Shown: piece by piece, positions 2,009 through 40,338 of the stretch | Layout of the letters: each line of letters opens with the position of its first letter | Position numbering within the stretch: the first letter of the stretch is position 1 | NCBI GenBank assembly: GCA_016795505.1 | Contig: JAEUHH010000040.1 | Coordinates: 1 to 48,995, forward strand | Origin: Verrucomicrobiales bacterium | Lineage (GTDB): Bacteria; Verrucomicrobiota; Verrucomicrobiia; Verrucomicrobiales; DEV007 | DNA: 48,995 bases | Reading direction: 5' to 3' | Program-made: the position numbers and the translations under genes | Notes under the pieces: generated by a model | Database searches by the model: none | The model's input: only the letters and a program-made list of their open reading frames with translations | What the model was told of the DNA's origin: nothing

Positions 2009-3040
2009 TCAGTGGGGATCTTGGGATCCGGGATGGCGGCGTTTTCTTTCGCCCACCAACACCGCACCGTAGCTCCGGAGTCGTTCGAAGCCAAACAGAC
2101 AGGCGGCGACCGCTGTCAGTGAGATCGCGGTCCCGGTCCACCCGAGAGCTGTCCTTTCCTCGTAAAATGTCCAGATCAATTGTCCCACGCACAGGAAGGC
2201 CACAAAGAAGAGGGTGGGTTTTCGCCCGATGTAGTCCACGACGAAGGCTCCCAATGGGGCGCCGAATGCGACGACGGGAGCCGCGGCCAGCCAATTCTCA
2301 AAAACGCCGGGCTGGACGCCGGTGAACAGATTTTTCGTTGCGATACCCACGAGCGAGGTGAAGGCCATGATGACCACGGAGGTGGGAATGGCAATCTTCA
2401 GGTCGGCGCGGCAAAGGAGCACCAGGATGGTGTAGAGGACCATGTCAATGCCCACGCCGGTGACCGATGCGACGAGGGCGCCGGCCAGAAGACCGATGGC
2501 GAGTCCGACGCGGAAGTCCCAGCGCTCATCGAAGTCGGTCATGCCGGTGTGTGAGGCGATCTCGCCAATCCGGCGGATGTGCAGCAGGCCGAAGCTGCCC
2601 CAGATGATGGCAAAGACGAGTTTGATCCAAAGAGCGGGCACGTGGGGGGCGATGAAAAAGATGCCCAGTGGGGTGCCGATGAGGGACCCGAGCATGGAGC
2701 CTTTCAACATGGCCCAGGCGAGTGGCTGGCGACGGGAGAGGATGAAGATGCTGGCGCTGGTCATGCCGATGGATTGGACGGCGAAGCTGAAATCGCGTCC
2801 CAGTTGAGCCGGTTGGTCGAACAGGAGCACGAGGATGGGAAATCCAATGGTGCCGCCCCCCATGGGAGTGGAGCCGGCGGCATAGCTGCCCAGAGCCATG
2901 GCGAGGGCGATGGGCCAGTGCTCCCTGACCTCGGTCCAGTGTCCAAGGCCGAATACCAGCCAGGACCATCCGGAGAAGAACAGGACCATCCAGAGAAACC
3001 AGATCCAGAGATGTTTCCGGGGTGGTGTGGTGATCGACAT
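2009..3040 (-). CDS. Sulfite exporter TauE/SafE (TSUP) family permease
   Basis: A 343-residue polytopic inner-membrane protein with about eight hydrophobic segments. The Gly/Pro-rich motif GSTPMGGGTIGFPIL in the first half and ASVTGVGIDMVLY in the second are typical of the two internal repeats of TSUP carriers. Members move sulfite, sulfoacetate, thiosulfate or other organosulfur anions, and which applies here cannot be read from sequence. The start is the ATG at 3040 (MSITTPPRK); an upstream in-frame ATG would extend the protein across the LysR operator region. It is divergent from the LysR gene at 3146 with a 105-bp gap, which suggests LysR control. Sulfur release by the sulfatase at 21.8 kb is a possible but untested link. 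Confidence 0.85.
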   Translation of the reverse strand: MSITTPPRKHLWIWFLWMVLFFSGWSWLVFGLGHWTEVREHWPIALAMALGSYAAGSTPMGGGTIGFPILVLLFDQPAQLGRDFSFAVQSIGMTSASIFILSRRQPLAWAMLKGSMLGSLIGTPLGIFFIAPHVPALWIKLVFAIIWGSFGLLHIRRIGEIASHTGMTDFDERWDFRVGLAIGLLAGALVASVTGVGIDMVLYTILVLLCRADLKIAIPTSVVIMAFTSLVGIATKNLFTGVQPGVFENWLAAAPVVAFGAPLGAFVVDYIGRKPTLFFVAFLCVGQLIWTFYEERTALGWTGTAISLTAVAACLFGFERLRSYGAVLVGERKRRHPGSQDPH

Positions 3041-3145: not shown

Positions 3146-4033
3146 ATGGATTTCCGACACCTGCGCTATTTTCAGGCCGTGGCCGAGGAGCTGAGCTTCT
3201 CGAGGGCGGCGCGGCGGCTACGCATCGCCCAGCCGGCCCTGAGCCGGGCGGTGCAGGAGCTGGAGCGGGATGTGGGGGTGATGCTGCTGGACCGGTCGCG
3301 GCGGTCGATCCGGCTGACTCCGGGCGGAGCGGTGCTGCTGCGCGAGACGGCGGGGGTGTTCGATCATGTGGATGACATGCTGCGCCGGGTGCGGCGGGCG
3401 GCAGCCGGGGAGGTGGGGGAATTGCGGCTGGGCTACATCGGTCCGCCGACGCGGTCTTTCCTCGGTCCCTTGCTGAAGGCTTATCATCGGGAGCATCCGG
3501 GGGTGACGATCGTGCTGGAGGAGCGCACGCCGGAGCGGGTCTGGGAGATGGTTTCGAAAGGCCGTCTGTCGGTCGGCCTGACGCGCCCGGTGCTGGCGCA
3601 CGAGGCTCTGGGCCTGCAGTCGCTGTTGCTGCGAGAGGAGCGGCTCTGTGCGGCGGTGCCGGTGGAGCATCCGTTGGCGGACCGACCGTCGATCCCGTGG
3701 CAGGCGCTGGCCGGCGAGTCGATCGTAATGCTGGCGCGGCGCGAGGGGGCGGGCTCGCACGATGCCATCCTGGCGGCGTGCAGTGAGGCGGGCTTTGTCC
3801 CGCGGCTGGCGCACACGCCGAGTGTGATCGGCACGGTGCTGCGCTATGTGGAGGCGGGCTCGGGGATCGGGATCGTGCCGGAAAGCGTGCTGCCCGACAC
3901 CGAGGCGGTGCGCCTGATCCCGCTGACGCCCGCGACGACGATCCCGCTGGTGATGGTGTGGTCGCGGGAAGGGGACGACCCGGCGGTGACGGCGTTCCGC
4001 GCGGTGGTGGAGCAGTGGCTGGCGGGTGGGTGA
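3146..4033 (+). CDS. LysR-family transcriptional regulator
   Basis: A 295-residue regulator. Residues 1-60 form the winged helix-turn-helix typical of the family, beginning MDFRHLRYFQAVAEELSF and continuing AARRLRIAQPALSRAVQELE. Residues 90-290 are the periplasmic-binding-protein-like effector domain (LRLGYIGPP start; GSGIGIVPESV near the end). Length is normal for the family. It is transcribed away from the TSUP permease gene, the usual arrangement when a LysR protein controls its divergent neighbour, and the gap contains a T-N11-A palindrome. The effector is unknown; a sulfur- or carboxylate-containing ligand is plausible given the target. The family assignment is secure. Confidence 0.93.
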   Translation: MDFRHLRYFQAVAEELSFSRAARRLRIAQPALSRAVQELERDVGVMLLDRSRRSIRLTPGGAVLLRETAGVFDHVDDMLRRVRRAAAGEVGELRLGYIGPPTRSFLGPLLKAYHREHPGVTIVLEERTPERVWEMVSKGRLSVGLTRPVLAHEALGLQSLLLREERLCAAVPVEHPLADRPSIPWQALAGESIVMLARREGAGSHDAILAACSEAGFVPRLAHTPSVIGTVLRYVEAGSGIGIVPESVLPDTEAVRLIPLTPATTIPLVMVWSREGDDPAVTAFRAVVEQWLAGG

Positions 4034-4051
4034 CGAAACGTTTCCGCCGGA

Positions 4052-4092
4052 AAACAATCGCGGGGCGGTGGCTTTGATTCACCACGCCCCGC
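4052..4092 (-). terminator. Probable intrinsic terminator of the OmpA-domain gene
   Basis: Read on the minus strand, GCGGGGCG (from 4092) pairs with CGCCCCGC (to 4060), with TGG/CCA extending the stem after one bulge and a short A-rich loop. GATTGTTTT follows the stem. It lies just past the stop of the gene ending at 4135. It may also stop lysR read-through from the other side, although no T-run follows on that strand. Confidence 0.55.
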
Positions 4093-4134
4093 GGCTGCGA
4101 AAGGGGAAAAAGTTGGTCCGGTGGTGGTGGCGGG

Positions 4135-5130
4135 TCACTGCTCGACCAACTCGACGCGGCGGTTTTTGGCGCGGCCGTCCTCGGTGCGGTTGCTCGCGAT
4201 AGGGGCGAGGGGACCGACCCCGGCGGGTTTGAGGCGCTCGGGGGCGATGGCGTAGCGGACGATCAGTTCCTTGGTCACCGATTCGGCGCGGGCGAGGGAG
4301 AGCTTCTGGTTGTAATCCATGCCGCCGACGTTGTCGGTGTGGCCGACGATGTGGAGCTTGAGGTCGGGCAGGTCGCGGAGAAGTTTGGCCATCTGCTCGA
4401 GGGTGGGCTGGGACTCGGGTTTGATGTCGGCCTTGTCGAAGTCGAAGAAGATGCCGTAGAGCGCGATGCTGCCGGTGGTCTCGATGCTGCTGGCCATCTT
4501 TTCGGCGCTGACGACGACCATGCGCTGGTCCATGGGCTTGTCCTCGACGATGTCGACCTGGATGACTGGCTGACCTTTCTGGGGCGTGAGGCCGCCGCTG
4601 AGTCCCATGTCATAAGCCGAGACGTAGATGGCGACGGTGATGTTGCCCTCGGGCCGGGTGAGGCGGGCGGCGATGAAGCGGTTGTCGGAGTCGTTGTACT
4701 CGAAGATCTGGGAGAAGACGCCGGTGTAGCGGGCGCCGAAGCGGAAACCGAGGGCTTCCTTTTCTCCTTTGAACAGGACGGTGTAGCCTTTGGCGGCGAG
4801 TTCCTGCTCGTAGTTGCGGAAGACTTCGAGCGCGGAGCGGCCGGCCGGGGCGAGGTAGGAGAGGCGGGTGAGGCGGCCCTCGATGGTCTCCTCCTTTTCG
4901 ATGGTGCGGCCCTGGTTCTCAGGCACGCTGGGATTCAGGGATTTGCCGAGGGGCAGCTTGTATTCGGTGAAGGCCTGCTGGCTGTATTCGAAGATGAAGC
5001 TGTCCTGATAGCGCTTCAGGGCGGGGTGGTCCTTGGCGCCGGCTTTGTCCTGGCTCTGGGCCGAGGCGGTCAGGGCGAGGGCGCCGAAGGCGGCGAACAG
5101 GCGGAGGGTGGTGGCGGGTGCGGTTCTCAT
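4135..5130 (-). CDS. OmpA-domain outer-membrane/periplasmic protein
   Basis: A 331-residue exported protein. Residues 1-25 are a signal peptide (MRTAPATTLRLFAAFGALAL, then ASAQ). The middle 190 residues are an unassigned domain. About the last 110 residues are an OmpA/MotB peptidoglycan-binding domain: ALYGIFFDFDKADIKPES, HIVGHTDNVG, LSLARAESV and a terminal NRRVEL. This domain binds diaminopimelate in peptidoglycan and tethers the outer membrane to the wall. The start is the ATG at 5130, which gives a clean signal peptide. The gene is codirectional with the kinase gene ending at 5255, and the 58-bp element at 5198-5255 lies just upstream, so it may be a target of the neighbouring ECF sigma factor. 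The central domain is unrecognised. Confidence 0.88.
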   Translation of the reverse strand: MRTAPATTLRLFAAFGALALTASAQSQDKAGAKDHPALKRYQDSFIFEYSQQAFTEYKLPLGKSLNPSVPENQGRTIEKEETIEGRLTRLSYLAPAGRSALEVFRNYEQELAAKGYTVLFKGEKEALGFRFGARYTGVFSQIFEYNDSDNRFIAARLTRPEGNITVAIYVSAYDMGLSGGLTPQKGQPVIQVDIVEDKPMDQRMVVVSAEKMASSIETTGSIALYGIFFDFDKADIKPESQPTLEQMAKLLRDLPDLKLHIVGHTDNVGGMDYNQKLSLARAESVTKELIVRYAIAPERLKPAGVGPLAPIASNRTEDGRAKNRRVELVEQ

Positions 5131-5197
5131 GGTGTGTGGGTAGTTGTTGGTGATGGTGATGTTGTTTTTCTTCAGGGCGGTCAGTGGGAGACCGCCG

Positions 5198-5255
5198 TTC
5201 ATTCGGTTCACTGGCAGGGCGGCGGGGGACGTGACGAAAATTCCGAAAAAAATTT
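5198..5255 (-). promoter_or_regulatory. 58-bp conserved upstream element, copy A
   Basis: On the minus strand it reads AAATTTTTTTCG, a 7-bp variable stretch, CGTCACGTCC, a 10-bp variable stretch, then TGCCAGTGAAC and a final TGAA. Copy B at 7648-7705 has the same blocks at identical spacing, 45 of 58 positions matching by my count. It abuts the kinase stop codon and lies 67 bp upstream of the OmpA-domain gene. It is probably a promoter or operator shared by the two genes flanking the kinase/ECF pair. Confidence 0.6.
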
Positions 5256-6742
5256 CAGGAGCCCGGCGTGGACTCGATCACAAAGGGGCGAGGCTCGTCG
5301 AAGCTCACGGCGCGCCAGCGGCCATCCGGCGCCAACACGAGGGCGCCGAAGCGCGGCGGCTCGCCGTCCCAGGCGGTCCATTGCCACGCCTGTCCGCTGC
5401 TCCATTCCCAGGCACCTCCGGGTCGCCAGCATTGTCCGCCGAGGAACAATCCGTCGGGTAAATCGCGGGCGAAGGTGTCGGTGAGAAAGCGATTGAGGTC
5501 CGCGTCGGTCACGGCCGCCAGCCGCCCATCGGCGGCCAGGGCGCGGTCATTGGCCTGCGCCCAGGGGAGCGGATCGGTAACGAGGGTGTATTGCCGTCCG
5601 CGAAAGACGGGTGCGCTGGCGCGGGGTGACGGGATCGACTGCGGCGGCGGTGGGGCGGCGCCGGGCGAGGTGGCCGGCTCCTGTTTCCCGATCCCGTGCC
5701 AGTAGGCGGTGCCTCCGGCGGAAAGGATCAGGGCGACTGCCGCCGCGACGAGGAGGCTGCGGCTGTGGCGCCGGGCGGGCGGGGCTGACGGCTGAGCCGG
5801 GAGGGCAGGCGGCCGAACGAGGGGCAGCAGATCGGCTTTCAAGGCGGCGGCGCTGGGATAGCGTCGGTCGGGCTGCTCCTGCATGGCGCGGAGCACGATG
5901 GGATCGAAGCGGGGATCGGTGCCCGATTTCCGCGAGGGCGGGTCGAAGACGCCGCGTGGCACCTGCCCGGTCAGCATTTCATAAAGCAACACGCCGACGC
6001 TGAAGAGATCGGCCCGGTGATCGACCGGCGCGGTGCCGTGCATCTGCTCGGGGGCGGCGTATTCCGGCGTGCCCATCGCGGCGCCGGTGCGGGTGTGCAT
6101 CGCGCCCTCCATCAGGGAGGGATGGGCCTCCAGCGCGACTTTGGCGAGGCCGAAGTCGGCCACCTTCACCCGGCCGCGGGCATCGAGGAGGATGTTCGAC
6201 GGCTTGATGTCGCGGTGGACGATGCCCTCCTCATGGGCGCAGGCGAGGGCATCGCAGATCTGGGTGGTAATGTCCAGGACCTCGCCCGCGCCGGGCCGGT
6301 GATGGCGCAGCCGGTCCGCCAGGGTGCTGCCGGAGACGTGCTCCATCGCAAAATAGAGCCAGCCATCGGCCGTGGTGCCGAAGTCATGCACGCCGACGAT
6401 GTTCGGGTGTTGGAGGCGGGCGAGGGCGCGGGCTTCGCGGTGAAACCGCTGGACGAATTTCTCGTCGCTGCTGAATTCGGCAGGCAGCAGCTTCAGGGCG
6501 ACCCGCCGGTCGAGCGAGCGGTGCCTCGCGAGGTAGACTGCGCCCATGCCGCCGCGTCCGAGCAATTCGAGGATCTCGTAGTGGGGAAACAGGCCCGCCA
6601 TTGTCTCCGGCGCGGGAGGCTGCCAGCCGGCGGACGGACTCTCGTCGGGAGCGGCGGAGAGACTCAGGTCGATCAGGCCATCGAGGTTCAGGCCTCCCAG
6701 CCAGTCGGGCTTGTCGGTGACGCGGTCAGGCGGGGAAGACAT
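5255..6742 (-). CDS. Transmembrane Ser/Thr protein kinase (PknB-like)
   Basis: A 495-residue kinase with a cytoplasmic kinase domain at about residues 55-310. Visible features are the glycine loop LGRGGMGAVY (61-70), catalytic Lys84 in VALKLL, Glu103, HRDIKPSNILL with Asp178, DFGLAK (196-201) and GTPEYAAPEQM. All catalytic residues are intact. A proline-rich stretch precedes one transmembrane helix at about 329-347. The extracytoplasmic tail of about 145 residues is Trp-rich and unrecognised, and could be a sensor. The start is the ATG at 6742; the longer frame would run into the divergent sigma-factor gene region. The paired ECF gene suggests phosphorylation-controlled sigma activity, a known arrangement in PVC bacteria. 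Confidence 0.92.
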   Translation of the reverse strand: MSSPPDRVTDKPDWLGGLNLDGLIDLSLSAAPDESPSAGWQPPAPETMAGLFPHYEILELLGRGGMGAVYLARHRSLDRRVALKLLPAEFSSDEKFVQRFHREARALARLQHPNIVGVHDFGTTADGWLYFAMEHVSGSTLADRLRHHRPGAGEVLDITTQICDALACAHEEGIVHRDIKPSNILLDARGRVKVADFGLAKVALEAHPSLMEGAMHTRTGAAMGTPEYAAPEQMHGTAPVDHRADLFSVGVLLYEMLTGQVPRGVFDPPSRKSGTDPRFDPIVLRAMQEQPDRRYPSAAALKADLLPLVRPPALPAQPSAPPARRHSRSLLVAAAVALILSAGGTAYWHGIGKQEPATSPGAAPPPPQSIPSPRASAPVFRGRQYTLVTDPLPWAQANDRALAADGRLAAVTDADLNRFLTDTFARDLPDGLFLGGQCWRPGGAWEWSSGQAWQWTAWDGEPPRFGALVLAPDGRWRAVSFDEPRPFVIESTPGS

Positions 6743-6861
6743 GGCGGGCGGGCGGTCACTCGAAAGCGGCTTCAAATAACGCTTTTGCGGTGACTTCCCG
6801 CAAGGGCGAATGCATGCCCCAGCGGTTGCAAATGCCGGCTCCGGTGGAAAACTGCTGCCCG

Positions 6862-7605
6862 ATGGCATCCGATTCCCACGCCGCCTTTCCCCCGACCCGC
6901 TGGAGCATCGTTCTGGCGACCCGCGAGGGCGGCGACAGCCGGGCGGGCGAAAAGGCGCTCGGCGAGTTGTGCCGGATCTATTGGCAGCCGATCTACAGCT
7001 TCGCCCGCCGGCGGGGCGCCTCGCCGGCCGATGCCGAGGACCTCGCCCAGGGATTTTTTATTCGCCTGATCGAGGACGACCTATTCGCGAAAGCCGACGC
7101 GTCGGCCGGACGGCTGCGGAGCTTTTTGCTGGGTGCCTTCCAGCGGTTCCAGCGCGAGGAATGGCGCAAATCGATGGCGGCGAAGCGCGGAGCCGGGCAG
7201 TCGCTGATTTCGTTCGACGCCGACGACGACCCCGAGGCGGCGTTTCAGGCCGAGGACCCTTCGGCCGAGTCGCCGGAGCGGCTGTTTGAGCGGCAGTGCG
7301 CCCGCGCCCTGTTGGCGGCGGCCATGAAACGCCTCGCCTCCGAGCAGGCTGCCATCGGCAAGGACCGCGCCTTTGCCCTGCTGCGTCCTTTGCTGAGTCC
7401 GTCGGAAGATGGCGACGAGGGCGGCACTCATGAGGAGATTGCCGCCGCTCTCGGTCTCACGGTCGAGGCATCGCGGGCGGCGGTGTATCGTCTGCGGAAG
7501 CGCTTTCGGGAGATCCTTCGGGAAACGGTGGCCGATACTCTGAGCCACCCAACGCCCGAGGCGATCGACGAGGAGTTGATGGCCCTGCGTGCCGCGCTTT
7601 CCTGA
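6862..7605 (+). CDS. ECF-type RNA polymerase sigma factor paired with the kinase
   Basis: A 247-residue sigma factor. Region 2 starts near residue 30 (ALGELCRIYWQPIYSFARR, then DAEDLAQGFFIRLIE), a PVC variant of the DAEDLVQE motif. Region 4 is at about 190-235 (THEEIAAALGLTVEASRAAV followed by YRLRKRFREIL). An acidic linker of about 60 residues separates the domains, longer than in classical ECF factors and typical of kinase-linked groups. It starts at the ATG at 6862 (MASDSHAAFPPTRWSIVLAT); TRWSIVL is a common N-terminus in this group. It is divergent from the kinase gene (119 bp apart) with no anti-sigma gene beside it, so the kinase is the likely regulator. Identical elements upstream of both flanking genes are its best candidate targets. 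Confidence 0.9.
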   Translation: MASDSHAAFPPTRWSIVLATREGGDSRAGEKALGELCRIYWQPIYSFARRRGASPADAEDLAQGFFIRLIEDDLFAKADASAGRLRSFLLGAFQRFQREEWRKSMAAKRGAGQSLISFDADDDPEAAFQAEDPSAESPERLFERQCARALLAAAMKRLASEQAAIGKDRAFALLRPLLSPSEDGDEGGTHEEIAAALGLTVEASRAAVYRLRKRFREILRETVADTLSHPTPEAIDEELMALRAALS

Positions 7606-7647
7606 GCCGCGATCCGGCGATCCGGGATCCGCCCCCAGTCGGAGCGA

Positions 7648-7705
7648 AAATTTTTTTCGCCTTTCGCGTCACGTCCTTCGCGGGATTGCCAGTGAACGGA
7701 GTGAA
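7648..7705 (+). promoter_or_regulatory. 58-bp conserved upstream element, copy B
   Basis: It has the same blocks and spacing as copy A: AAATTTTTTTCG, CGTCACGTCC, then TGCCAGTGAAC and TGAA. The T-run sits in a small palindrome (GCGAAAA-TTT-TTTTCGC at 7645-7661). The 3' part holds a direct repeat, AGTGAA-CGG-AGTGAA. It lies 42 bp after the ECF stop and 117 bp before the small secreted-protein gene. Promoter function is inferred from placement, not shown. Confidence 0.6.
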
Positions 7706-7822
7706 GACCCGTGGGCGGGGCCGGCTCGAAGAAGCAAGCCGGTTGCCCAAGCTCCCGGGTCTTCCTTTGAGAAACGAACAACAAACAAACCAAAATCAGA
7801 AATCCAAACTGTTCACACTGCC

Positions 7823-8197
7823 ATGAAAACCAAATCCCGTCTCTCCCTCCTGCTGGCCACCTGCATTGCCCTCGGTGGCGCCGCCCTGCCGGCCGTTTCG
7901 CAGGCCGATCCCTACTACTGGGGATTCCGCATCGTGCCGGTGGTTCCGCCGGATGCGCCCGTCTATGTGCCGACGCCCGCACCGGTGGCGCCCGGCTACT
8001 CGGGTGGCCGGCGCGGTGACTACCAGCCGCACCTGGCCCATGCCTACCGGATGGGCTACTACGCCGGTCGCCAGGACCGCGCCTGGGGGCTCGATCGGAA
8101 TTATCGCCGGGCCTTCGAGCTGTCCGGCGCCTCTTGGGAGAGCTACTTCCAGGAAGGCTATGCCGATGGCTACGACTGCCGGCCGATGAATCATTGA
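7823..8197 (+). CDS. Small secreted protein of unknown function
   Basis: A 124-residue protein with a clear signal peptide (MKTKSRLSLLLATCIALGGA, cleavage after AVSQA near residue 29). The mature part is rich in Tyr, Gly and Pro. It has a Pro/Val stretch (VPVVPPDAPVYVPTPAPVAP), then a Tyr/Gly/Arg segment with MGYYAGRQDRAWG and YFQEGYADGYD resembling a repeated G-Y-x-x-G pattern. I do not recognise the family. It follows the ECF gene in the same direction, with the 58-bp element between them, so it may be an envelope protein induced through the kinase/sigma system. The upstream in-frame extension is unsupported; the ATG at 7823 gives the signal peptide. Confidence 0.75.
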   Translation: MKTKSRLSLLLATCIALGGAALPAVSQADPYYWGFRIVPVVPPDAPVYVPTPAPVAPGYSGGRRGDYQPHLAHAYRMGYYAGRQDRAWGLDRNYRRAFELSGASWESYFQEGYADGYDCRPMNH

Positions 8198-8234
8198 TCG
8201 GAAGCCGACCCGACACAGCCCCGAAGCCAGACCG

Positions 8235-8268
8235 CGCCCCGTCTTTCTCTCCGGAGGAAGCCGGGGCG
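8235..8268 (+). terminator. Possible stem-loop after the small secreted-protein gene
   Basis: CGCCCCG at 8235-8241 pairs with CGGGGCG at 8262-8268, and inner TCC/GGA and CTT/AAG pairs extend the stem. It begins 37 bp after the stop codon. No clear T-run follows, so intrinsic termination is uncertain. Confidence 0.35.
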
Positions 8269-8346
8269 TCGGCATTTCCGGCGGGCGGGCGGCTTCTGTT
8301 GGCGAATTGAATTGACTTGGCCGGCACGATCCGGCACAAGCGGCCG

Positions 8347-9495
8347 ATGAAACCCCATCTCGCTTTCCTCCTGTTGACTCTGTGGCTGGGCGGGTTCTTC
8401 CCGACAGCGGCCCAGGGGCAGCCGCTACTCTACACGGTGCCGTTCCGGGCGGGTGACGGCGGCTATGTGATTTACCGGATTCCGGCGCTGTGGTGGATGC
8501 CGAAAAGCCCCCTGCTGGCTTTTGCCGAAGCGCGTGCGAGTGGTCGCCGCATGGCAGGGGACATCGACATTGCCCTGCGCCGCAGCTTTGACCATGGTCA
8601 GACCTGGGAGCCGATGCAGATCGTGGTCGATCTCGACAAAGACGCCTGCGGCAATCCCTGTGTGGTGCGTGACGAGTCGACTGGCCGGATCTGGCTCGCG
8701 TTCACGCGCAGCCGGGGGCAGGACACCGAGGAGCAGATCGTCGCTGGCACGGTTCCGGGCACGCGGGTGTATGTCATCCACAGCGACGATCAGGGCGCCA
8801 CCTGGTCGGATCCCCGGGAGATCTCGGAGACGGCCCGCGAGCCGGATTGGGGGTGGTACGGCACCGGACCGGGACTCGGACTCTATCTGAGGCGGAATCA
8901 AGGGGATGGCCGGTTGTTGATTCCGGCTTACCACTCTGAGGGAGGGATCTACCGCACGCATTGCCTCTATTCCGATGACCATGGGGAGACCTGGCAGCGT
9001 GGGGCGGTGGCCGCGGAGCACAGCAGCGAGCCCCAGATCGCAGAACTCGATCAGCGCACCCTGCTGATGAATGCGCGGACCATCGCCGGACACGGGCAGA
9101 CGCGGACGCTCGCTGTCAGCTCCGACCGGGGCGAGACGTGGAAGCCCGCCGATGGACTGGCAGCCCTGCCCGAGAATGAATGCCAGGGGGCATTCTATCG
9201 CTGTTTCCGATCCGGCTCGGACGGGCAATACGACTGGGTGTTCACCCACCCGGCCAGCCGGGGACGGGTCGGCGTGCATGGCTGGATCAGCGAAGACGGT
9301 GGAAAAACCTGGCCGAAAGCCCAGCTGCTGTGGTCTGGTCCGAGCGCCTACACCGCGATGATCCGGACCGAGGGAGGCCTGATCGGCATGCTGATGGAAT
9401 GCGGCAGCAAGGACGTATACGAGCAGATCGTTTTCGTCAAATTCGCTCCCGAGTGGTTGAAGGCAAGAAAGGCACCCGTAGGGGCATCGAAATGA
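8347..9495 (+). CDS. Exo-alpha-sialidase (BNR/Asp-box neuraminidase family)
   Basis: A 382-residue secreted six-bladed beta-propeller hydrolase of the GH33/BNR class. A signal peptide occupies about residues 1-30 (MKPHLAFLLLTLWLGGF). The arginine-triad motif appears as YVIYRIPALW (YRIP in place of FRIP). Five Asp boxes follow: SFDHGQTWE, SDDQGATWSD, SDDHGETWQR, SSDRGETWKP and SEDGGKTWPK. FAEAR follows the RIP motif as in known sialidases. The enzyme would release terminal sialic acids or related sugars from glycans in the periplasm or outside the cell. The start is the ATG at 8347. No sialic-acid catabolic genes are visible here, so scavenging of released sugars or unmasking of a deeper glycan are equally possible. 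Exact specificity is not readable. Confidence 0.85.
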   Translation: MKPHLAFLLLTLWLGGFFPTAAQGQPLLYTVPFRAGDGGYVIYRIPALWWMPKSPLLAFAEARASGRRMAGDIDIALRRSFDHGQTWEPMQIVVDLDKDACGNPCVVRDESTGRIWLAFTRSRGQDTEEQIVAGTVPGTRVYVIHSDDQGATWSDPREISETAREPDWGWYGTGPGLGLYLRRNQGDGRLLIPAYHSEGGIYRTHCLYSDDHGETWQRGAVAAEHSSEPQIAELDQRTLLMNARTIAGHGQTRTLAVSSDRGETWKPADGLAALPENECQGAFYRCFRSGSDGQYDWVFTHPASRGRVGVHGWISEDGGKTWPKAQLLWSGPSAYTAMIRTEGGLIGMLMECGSKDVYEQIVFVKFAPEWLKARKAPVGASK

Positions 9496-39981: not shown

Positions 39982-40338
39982 GGCGTGGAGAGCGCCTTGT
40001 TTGGGATCGAGAGTCAATTGTTTGGCATCGAGAGGCGATTGATTGGGTTGGAGAGGCGATTGATTGGCATGGAGAGTCGATTGTTTGGCATGGAGAGTCG
40101 ATTGATTGGCATGGAGAGCGGATTGTTTGGCATGGAGAGTCGATTGATTGGCATGGAGAGTCGATTGATTGGCATGGAGAGCGGATTGATTGGCATGGAG
40201 AGGCGTTTGATTGGCATGGAGAGCGGATTGATTGGCATGGAGAGCGGATTGTCTGACATGGAGAGCGGATTGTTTGGCATGGAGAGCGGATTGTTTGGCA
40301 TGGAGAGGCGTTTGATTGCCGTGGACGGGCGATTGATC
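39982..40338. repeat. 21-bp tandem repeat, 17 units, upstream of sufS
   Basis: Seventeen exact-length 21-bp units, typically GGCATGGAGAG, then T/C/G, then a CGATTGATT-like end, with edge units most diverged. Variation is limited to a few positions. Five of six frames are open, so openness is not evidence of coding. In frame with sufS it reads as a heptad (Met/Ile/Leu/Val-Glu-Ser/Arg-x-Leu-Ile/Phe-Gly) spanning 119 residues. I treat it as a minisatellite before sufS; an N-terminal extension of SufS is the alternative. Confidence 0.92.

What the first reader, a model, noticed from the sequence alone, without database searches (positions are those of the whole stretch)
5198..7705. Shared 58-bp element before both genes flanking a kinase/ECF pair
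The elements at 5198-5255 (minus) and 7648-7705 (plus) share 45 of 58 positions and, more strikingly, the same spacing between AAATTTTTTTCG, CGTCACGTCC and TGCCAGTGAAC. They sit symmetrically: one after the kinase gene and before the OmpA-domain gene, the other after the sigma gene and before a small secreted-protein gene. The simplest reading is a common control site, perhaps a promoter of the paired ECF sigma factor. The three-block structure does not match a promoter consensus that I know.
Basis: partly seen in the sequence, partly recalled or inferred. Interest (0 to 1): 0.72.

Follow-up and report, generated by a model that had tools for sequence, protein, structure and literature searches.

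The report
Shared promoter of kinase-linked sigma factor
Two matching stretches of DNA beside a bacterial signalling-kinase/sigma-factor gene pair look like the on-switches which that sigma factor uses to turn on two neighbouring envelope-protein genes, because the same switch sits before the same kinds of gene in related bacteria even where the genes have moved apart.

Summary
Elements A (5198-5255, minus) and B (7648-7705, plus) agree at 45 of 58 positions, and three patterns drawn from them match nowhere else in the 6.5-Mb genome. Best reading: a pair of promoters for the neighbouring ECF sigma factor, core GT[A/C]AC[G/A]-N14-GCCAG[A/T] with an A/T tract upstream. The support is comparative. 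The core lies before the OmpA gene in 13 of 13 genomes or records with a sigma of this clade, and before 0 of 25 distinct OmpA homologues elsewhere. It survives a change of gene order. In genome G076, where sigma stands alone, two sites on another contig precede the OmpA-kinase pair and a small-gene homologue. A sister sigma clade keeps GTCAC with a different second block. The regulon looks narrow here: two strong sites (not exhaustive). Use by sigma, start sites and kinase control are inferred. New member of a known kind.

The parts
5198..5255 (-). Element A: predicted sigma-dependent promoter of the OmpA-domain gene
   Evidence: 45/58 identity to B; core conserved before the OmpA gene in 13 of 13 genomes or records with a sigma of this clade
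5230..5235 (-). -35-like block GTCACG of element A
   Evidence: GT[AC]AC[GA] in the 25 catalogued sites; the search pattern requires it
5210..5215 (-). -10-like block GCCAGT of element A
   Evidence: N14 spacing to -35; GCCAG invariant in the 21-site alignment (sites were picked with GCCAG in the pattern)
7648..7705 (+). Element B: predicted sigma-dependent promoter of the small secreted-protein gene
   Evidence: present after the sigma gene in L063, L064 and in 7 of 8 loci L090-L097
7668..7673 (+). -35-like block GTCACG of element B
7688..7693 (+). -10-like block GCCAGT of element B
6865..7605 (+). ECF-type sigma factor gene (246 aa), proposed to recognise A and B
   Evidence: TIGR02937 sigma70-ECF at 1.3e-12, above its cut-off; Pfam regions 2 and 4 only below cut-off
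5255..6742 (-). Ser/Thr protein kinase gene, divergent from sigma, proposed to control its activity
   Evidence: Pkinase PF00069 at 5.9e-48; kinase homologue in the fetched stretch of 24 of 25 loci and 14 of 20
4135..5130 (-). OmpA-domain / DUF4892 envelope protein gene, predicted target of A
   Evidence: PF00691 at 3.7e-19, PF16234 at 6.6e-8
7823..8197 (+). Small protein gene (124 aa) with a signal-peptide-like start (by eye), predicted target of B
   Evidence: No Pfam or NCBIfam match; homologues 61-64% identical follow the same element in L063/L064
5176..5196 (-). Stem-loop (7 bp stem) in the predicted 5' leader of the OmpA transcript
   Evidence: RNA fold, leader z = -1.7; conservation not shown
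7703..7764 (+). Strong stem-loop GAAGACCCG...CGGGTCTTC in the predicted 5' leader of the small-protein transcript
   Evidence: RNA fold, leader z = -2.8; conservation not shown

Best explanation
Elements A and B are promoters of the ECF sigma factor encoded between them. RNA polymerase carrying this sigma is proposed to bind GTCAC (-35) and GCCAG[A/T] (-10), 15 bp apart between GTCAC and GCCAG, helped by an A/T tract upstream that could act as an UP element. It would transcribe the OmpA-domain gene from A and the small secreted-protein gene from B. The divergently encoded Ser/Thr kinase probably controls the sigma factor's activity in response to an envelope signal; that step is inferred. Shown here: the motif, its spacing, its position before the same two gene types, its co-occurrence with this sigma clade, and its absence before the OmpA homologues examined elsewhere. 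Inferred: recognition by this sigma, start sites, the role of the A/T tract, kinase control and the signal.
For: (1) Only two full-motif sites in the genome; a sequence model gives A 7e-11 and B 3e-8, next hit 0.09 (150 of 2669 candidates scored). (2) L063 and L064 (sigma 87-88% identical) keep both sites. (3) In 8 f4 loci with sigma 54-57% identical, OmpA lies between sigma and kinase, unlike the window, yet all 8 OmpA genes keep the core; 7 of the 8 also have it directly after sigma, and in the eighth (L095) it lies before the relocated small-gene homologue. (4) Out of sample, G076: sigma without these neighbours on contig C3; of 11 bare-pattern matches I picked two on C5 by eye, and they precede the OmpA-kinase pair and the small-gene homologue; model R1, not trained on G076, then ranked the same two first (7.5e-8 and 1.7e-7, next 0.069). 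(5) Out of sample, G054: both sites. (6) Core before OmpA in 13 of 13 genomes or records with this sigma clade, 0 of 25 distinct homologues without; the window's OmpA is only 38-40% identical to the f4 OmpAs that share the site, while two site-less homologues are 46-47% (L188, L196). (7) Sigma tree: window group plus group I form one clade (99/93); group II, with GTCAC but a different second block, is separate, and the sigma stretch I take for region 2.3-2.4 differs in parallel (placement recalled). (8) Over 64 distinct sigma proteins, an A/T tract plus GT[AC]AC lies divergently upstream in 19 (reversed control 0) and downstream in 19 (control 1). (9) Paralogue in G001: three GTAACG-N14-TCTTTAA sites before three genes.
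Against: No expression, start-site or binding data exist here. The bare core GTMACR-N14-GCCAGW is at control level genome-wide (G000: 7 hits against 8 in the reversed control), so specificity must need more than the core, or the sigma also uses weak sites. Model R1 scores two real-looking N15 sites poorly (0.019 in G059, 0.16 in G058), so variant sites in G000 could be missed. The sigma gene has no such site of its own (sense upstream 4 of 64 against control 3), whereas many ECF genes are thought to be autoregulated (recalled). The window's kinase has no element upstream of it either. Of the 38 sigma rows outside the three groups, only 6 have the A/T-GT[AC]AC feature divergently upstream and none downstream. 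GCCAG is an unusual -10 (recalled). Many relatives are close, so the counts are not independent. 21 of the 25 sites trained R1, so its good scores in nine of the ten genomes with this sigma clade are circular.
Confidence: 0.84

Rival explanations
1. A and B are operator sites of another DNA-binding regulator, and the sigma factor acts elsewhere.
For: The bare -35/-10 core is not enriched genome-wide, and bases downstream of -10 are also conserved, as an operator could require.
Against: The sites go with this sigma clade and with its relocated targets. The second block differs between sigma clades while the first stays. The geometry is promoter-like.
Confidence: 0.09
2. A and B are terminal inverted repeats of a mobile kinase/sigma cassette.
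For: They face outward in inverted orientation around a 2.4-kb gene pair, and in the three searched genomes of the same genus the best sigma matches are only 36-40% identical.
Against: In f4 relatives the element lies between sigma and OmpA or on a different contig from sigma, before target genes; an extra copy precedes an extra target gene in L093. Similarity lies in promoter-like blocks.
Confidence: 0.02
3. The conserved element acts as a leader RNA (attenuator, thermosensor or stability hairpin) rather than as a promoter.
For: Stem-loops follow A and B, and the six group I leaders that I folded pair GGGGATGA (or most of it) with TCATCCC just before the start codon.
Against: The most conserved blocks (GTMAC, GCCAG) lie upstream of these structures. 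The group I leader sequence is not seen in the window, L063 or L064. No Rfam match in window 4000-8500 or in seven loci.
Confidence: 0.03
4. Chance similarity, or members of a dispersed repeat family.
For: The window holds other 45-46/58 inverted pairs, and one lies in a real dispersed repeat family.
Against: Full motif unique in the genome, and the core is retained before the same gene types at sigma identities of about 54-88%.
Confidence: 0.01

Closest known systems
ECF sigma factor promoters in general (for example SigX- and sigmaE-type; consensus recalled)
   Same: A/T-rich upstream tract, a GTAAC-like -35, a short -10 about 20 nt downstream, targets in the cell envelope.
   Different: -10 is GCCAG[A/T]; the GTMAC-GCCAG gap is 15 bp against the usual 16-17 (recalled); the sigma gene itself lacks the site.
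Kinase-linked ECF43 systems EcfP/PknT (Vibrio parahaemolyticus) and EcfK/PknS (Xanthomonas citri) (PMC8999054 section 3.4 and passages; PMC13147305 passages)
   Same: An ECF sigma encoded beside a Ser/Thr kinase.
   Different: ECF43 members lack the DAED motif in region 2.2; this sigma keeps DAED, so activation by restoring charge there is not supported. PMC13147305 also reports phosphosites in the linker of EcfK, a route not tested here.
Kinase-linked groups ECF59, ECF61, ECF62, ECF217 (listed in PMC8999054 with planctomycete examples)
   Same: Kinase-linked ECFs; groups other than ECF43 are said to keep a DAED-like motif.
   Different: Group assignment could not be tested; I saw no target promoter for these groups in the passages read.

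Membership tests
ECF-dependent promoter | -35 of the AAC kind with a short -10 at fixed spacing (recalled) | tested here: met
   GT[AC]AC and GCCAG with N14 after the sixth base in 23 of 25 sites, N15 in 2; the search regex allowed 13-16 and required GCCAG[AT]
ECF-dependent promoter | Occurs with its sigma factor and not without it | tested here: met
   13 of 13 against 0 of 25 OmpA upstream regions; model hits below 1e-6 in 10 of 10 genomes with this sigma clade and 0 of 7 without (partly circular)
ECF-dependent promoter | Transcript starts just downstream of -10 and depends on the sigma | not testable with these tools
   Needs 5'-end mapping and in vitro transcription
ECF-dependent promoter | Autoregulation: a site upstream of the sigma gene itself (common, not universal; recalled) | tested here: not met
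   Upstream sense 4 of 64 sigma genes, reversed control 3; none upstream of the window's sigma
ECF43 kinase-activated sigma | Kinase gene next to the sigma gene | tested here: met
   Kinase 5255-6742 divergent from sigma 6865-7605
ECF43 kinase-activated sigma | Region 2.2 lacks the acidic DAED/DxxD motif | tested here: not met
   DAED present in the window, L063 and L064; criterion from PMC8999054
ECF59/61/62/217 | Match to the group's profile | not tested
   No profile library of ECF groups was available
Housekeeping sigma-70 promoter | TTGACA / TATAAT hexamers | tested here: not met
   One site found in 4000-8500, at 7767-7796, not at A or B
Intrinsic terminator | G+C stem followed by a T run | tested here: not met
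   0 of 5 terminator-like sites overlap A or B
Terminal inverted repeats of a mobile element | Repeats bound the same cassette | tested here: not met
   Element in trans in G076 and between sigma and OmpA in L090-L097

The most novel reading that the evidence does not exclude
The large family of these sigma factors (39 matches in one searched genome), many of them kinase-linked, uses a promoter code with a nearly constant -35 (GT[A/C]AC) and a paralogue-specific -10, so that each kinase/sigma unit drives only a few genes, mostly its own neighbours, without cross-talk. Second blocks seen: GCCAG[A/T], a group II set such as GCATAA/GGATAA/GGCTAA, TCTTTAA in one locus, and possibly TCCGAAG. Against it: outside the three groups only 6 of 38 sigma rows show the A/T-GT[AC]AC feature, and only one locus outside groups W and I shows convincingly paired sites.
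Probability: 0.33. Interest if true: 0.68.

Novelty: new member of a known kind. Interest (0 to 1): 0.5.

Why it matters
The searched genomes hold many sigma factors of this family (43 of 57 relatives have at least one match), and I found no target promoter for them in the papers searched (listings, with passages of three papers). A specific promoter with two predicted target genes makes such a system testable with simple reporters. It also gives a concrete case in which the -10 sequence and the sigma's putative region 2.3-2.4 change together between sister clades while the -35 stays.

Tried and rejected
The first genome pattern with a gap used a wrong gap (N12-16 where the true gap is 11) and found nothing; corrected. 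A PWM from A and B alone was too weak to find distant sites. Reading B's leader as pairing its 5' end with the start region (centroid) was dropped, because L063 lacks the matching strand (sequence, by eye). An upstream reading frame overlapping the start codon in group I leaders was considered by eye and dropped, because the frame is not kept (sequences). A lectin-like reading of the kinase's C-terminal part is recalled only; Pfam gave nothing. One pattern hit (L092:6711) was left out of the 21-site alignment as a probable chance hit. In G076 I picked two of 11 pattern matches by eye; the other nine there were not inspected beyond the two fetched as loci (listed). In the OmpA test, 30 of the 42 matches and all 11 were examined; L202 (51 nt upstream only) was dropped and repeated places counted once. 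The match table was truncated by the tool and loci were fetched for the best match per genome only, so the 64 sigma rows are a best-scoring sample. and the others scan only the genomes named; one search scored 150 candidates per genome.
Full report
OBSERVATION. Elements A (5198-5255, minus) and B (7648-7705, plus) match at 45 of 58 positions. AAATTTTTTTCG, GTCACG-N13-17-CCAGTGAAC, and the longer pattern with up to 3 mismatches each occur exactly twice in the 6,547,602-base genome, at these two places, with 0 control matches. With B plus 4 bases as a BLAST query, A is found at E = 2.3e-6 and the next hit at 0.10. Ungapped identity alone is not unique in the window: two other inverted pairs reach 45-46 of 58, and one of them involves a dispersed repeat family. 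So the weight lies in the genome-wide uniqueness and in conservation.

GENES. The sigma gene is 6865-7605 (+), the Ser/Thr kinase 5255-6742 (-), the OmpA/DUF4892 gene 4135-5130 (-) and the small gene 7823-8197 (+). Element A begins on the last base of the kinase stop codon and points at the OmpA gene. Element B begins 42 nt after the sigma stop and points at the small gene.

CLOSE RELATIVES. Two named Verrucomicrobiales MAG contigs (L063, L064; sigma 87-88% identical) have all four genes in the same order (L063 is cut at a contig end within OmpA) and both sites. In them the A/T tract is changed in sequence (AAAAAAATTCC before B of L063), while GCGTCACGTC and TGCCAGTGAACGGAATGAAGA are kept.

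MORE DISTANT RELATIVES, GROUP I. In another family of the order (f4), nine sigma genes are 54-57% identical. In eight of these loci (L090-L097) the OmpA gene lies between sigma and kinase, unlike the window. All eight OmpA genes carry GTAAC[G/A]-N14-GCCAGA upstream. Seven of the eight carry the core directly after sigma (N15 in L096 and L097); in L095 it precedes a relocated small-gene homologue. In L093 the gene next to sigma is a different one, and a further copy precedes a small-gene-like gene. The ninth, G076 (L098), has sigma without these neighbours on contig C3. The bare pattern matches 11 places in G076. I picked two on contig C5 by eye; one precedes an OmpA-kinase gene pair (OmpA 92% identical to L090's) and the other a homologue of the small gene. 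Model R1, which G076 did not train, then ranked the same two first (7.5e-8, 1.7e-7; next 0.069). G054, found later, has both sites beside a sigma gene whose frame is broken and whose pieces are 69-78% identical to L090's sigma.

SITE ANATOMY. In 25 catalogued sites the gap after GTMACR is 14 in 23 and 15 in 2 (the pattern required GTMACR and GCCAGW and allowed gaps of 13-16). The A/T run lies about 10 bp before GTMAC in the window group and in most group I small-gene sites, and directly against GTMAC in several group I OmpA sites. Block 1 is therefore an A/T-rich, movable feature, consistent with an UP element (inference).

SPECIFICITY. The bare core is at control level in whole genomes (G000: 7 matches against 8 in the reversed control). 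The 60-position sequence model R1 from 21 sites gives in G000 A (7.3e-11) and B (2.7e-8), then 0.086 (150 of 2669 first-look candidates scored). All 10 searched genomes with this sigma clade have a best hit of 7.1e-7 or better; the 7 without have 0.005 at best. This is partly circular, because sites from nine of those ten genomes trained R1; G076 did not. R1 also scores the two N15 sites poorly (0.019 and 0.16), so it can miss variants. The OmpA test is cleaner: 13 of 13 OmpA genes in genomes or records with this sigma clade (G000, L063, L064 and ten f4 genomes, G054 with its broken sigma included) have the site, and 0 of 25 distinct OmpA homologues elsewhere do (30 of 42 matches and 11 of 11 examined; L202 dropped; repeats counted once). 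The window's OmpA is 38-40% identical to the group I OmpAs that share the site, while two site-less homologues reach 46-47% (L188, L196), so sharing follows the sigma rather than close OmpA similarity. Absence of this sigma clade in the negative genomes is judged from the identities.

SISTER CLADE AND PARALOGUES. Group II sigma genes (about 48-52% identical) have an A/T tract, GTCACA and a different second block, read by eye (such as GCATAA, GGATAA, GGCTAA, GGTTA). The A/T-GTCAC feature lies divergently upstream, towards the kinase, in 13 of 14 and downstream in 11 of 14 group II rows. The tree places the window group with group I (99/93) and group II apart. The stretch I take for region 2.3-2.4 reads FQRFQREEWRK in the window, LQRWQRGEWRK in L090 (group I) and FGRHIKHWQRQ in L033 (group II). 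Over 64 distinct sigma proteins the A/T tract plus GT[AC]AC is found divergently upstream in 19 (reversed control 0), downstream in 19 (control 1), upstream in sense in 4 (control 3) and convergent downstream in 0 (control 0). All 19 downstream cases, and 13 of the 19 divergent ones, belong to the three groups; of the 38 rows outside them only 6 have the feature divergently upstream. The sigma gene itself seems not to be a target. In G001, a genome of the window's genus, a paralogous sigma/kinase locus has three sites GTAACG-N14-TCTTTAA, two before paralogous secreted-protein genes and one before a methyltransferase-like gene if that gene starts at the ATG at L045:7181 (gene types read by eye). 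A pair test across loci gave 13 similar pairs in 10 loci of 254 pairs tested, and 0 of 295 in reversed sequence. L020 and L045 are the same place, the L100 pair looks like chance, and the rest are groups W and I; group II pairs did not reach the threshold.

MECHANISM. Most likely the sigma factor, when active, directs polymerase to A and B and so raises an OmpA-domain envelope protein and a small secreted protein. The kinase next to it probably sets its activity, as in EcfP/PknT and EcfK/PknS (PMC8999054 section 3.4 and passages, PMC13147305 passages). The sigma keeps DAED in region 2.2, so the ECF43 way of activation, in which phosphorylation restores a missing charge, is not supported; a different phosphosite, such as the linker sites reported for EcfK, or an indirect route is needed. 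In group I and II loci the kinase lies downstream of such a promoter (after OmpA, or directly), which would give positive feedback (inference); in the window group it does not.

LITERATURE. Searches gave listings; passages were read in PMC8103513, PMC8999054 and PMC13147305. None of what I read describes this motif. The papers on planctomycete ECFs that I looked up are not held here, nor is the ECF re-classification paper, so a published motif cannot be excluded. Promoter consensus statements for other ECFs are recalled.

Noticed in passing
window 11306 and 29296 (exact core); similar stretches at 1912, 37513, 43157; 38 places in G000: A dispersed repeat with core TCGGCGATGNNACCNNGTT, partly in tandem with a 22-base period (contig C75 near 93566): 38 genome matches against 0 in the reversed control. 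REP-like by eye; function unknown.
   Followed up: partly
L090-L097 and L141, leaders after the small-gene promoter: Group I leaders start GGGGA[T/C]GA(A)CGCGG and end TCATCCC just before ATG (10 leaders aligned); in the six folded, the two ends pair, with an inner hairpin in most (z -2.7 to -6.1). The leader is kept before different genes (L093). No Rfam match in five of these loci. A structured leader on the regulon's mRNAs is possible.
   Followed up: partly
L045 (G001:C416) 5251, 6153, 7101: Three promoter-like sites GTAACG-N14-TCTTTAA at a paralogous sigma/kinase locus in the window's genus.
   Followed up: yes
L063 near 3455-3495 and L064 near 6789-6830: A long perfect or near-perfect inverted repeat (CGTTACAATTCTTGTCC...GGACAAGAATTGTAACG) between the sigma gene and element B, seen; perhaps a terminator or an operator.
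   Followed up: no
window 37502 / 39719, about 40050-40300, about 139-230: Exact 58-base direct repeat, and overlapping high-identity pairs that suggest short-period tandem repeats, in the all-against-all scan.
   Followed up: no
L217 (G054:C18) 2298-3021: Group I sigma gene with a broken reading frame (two tblastn pieces in different frames); genuine frameshift or assembly error.
   Followed up: no
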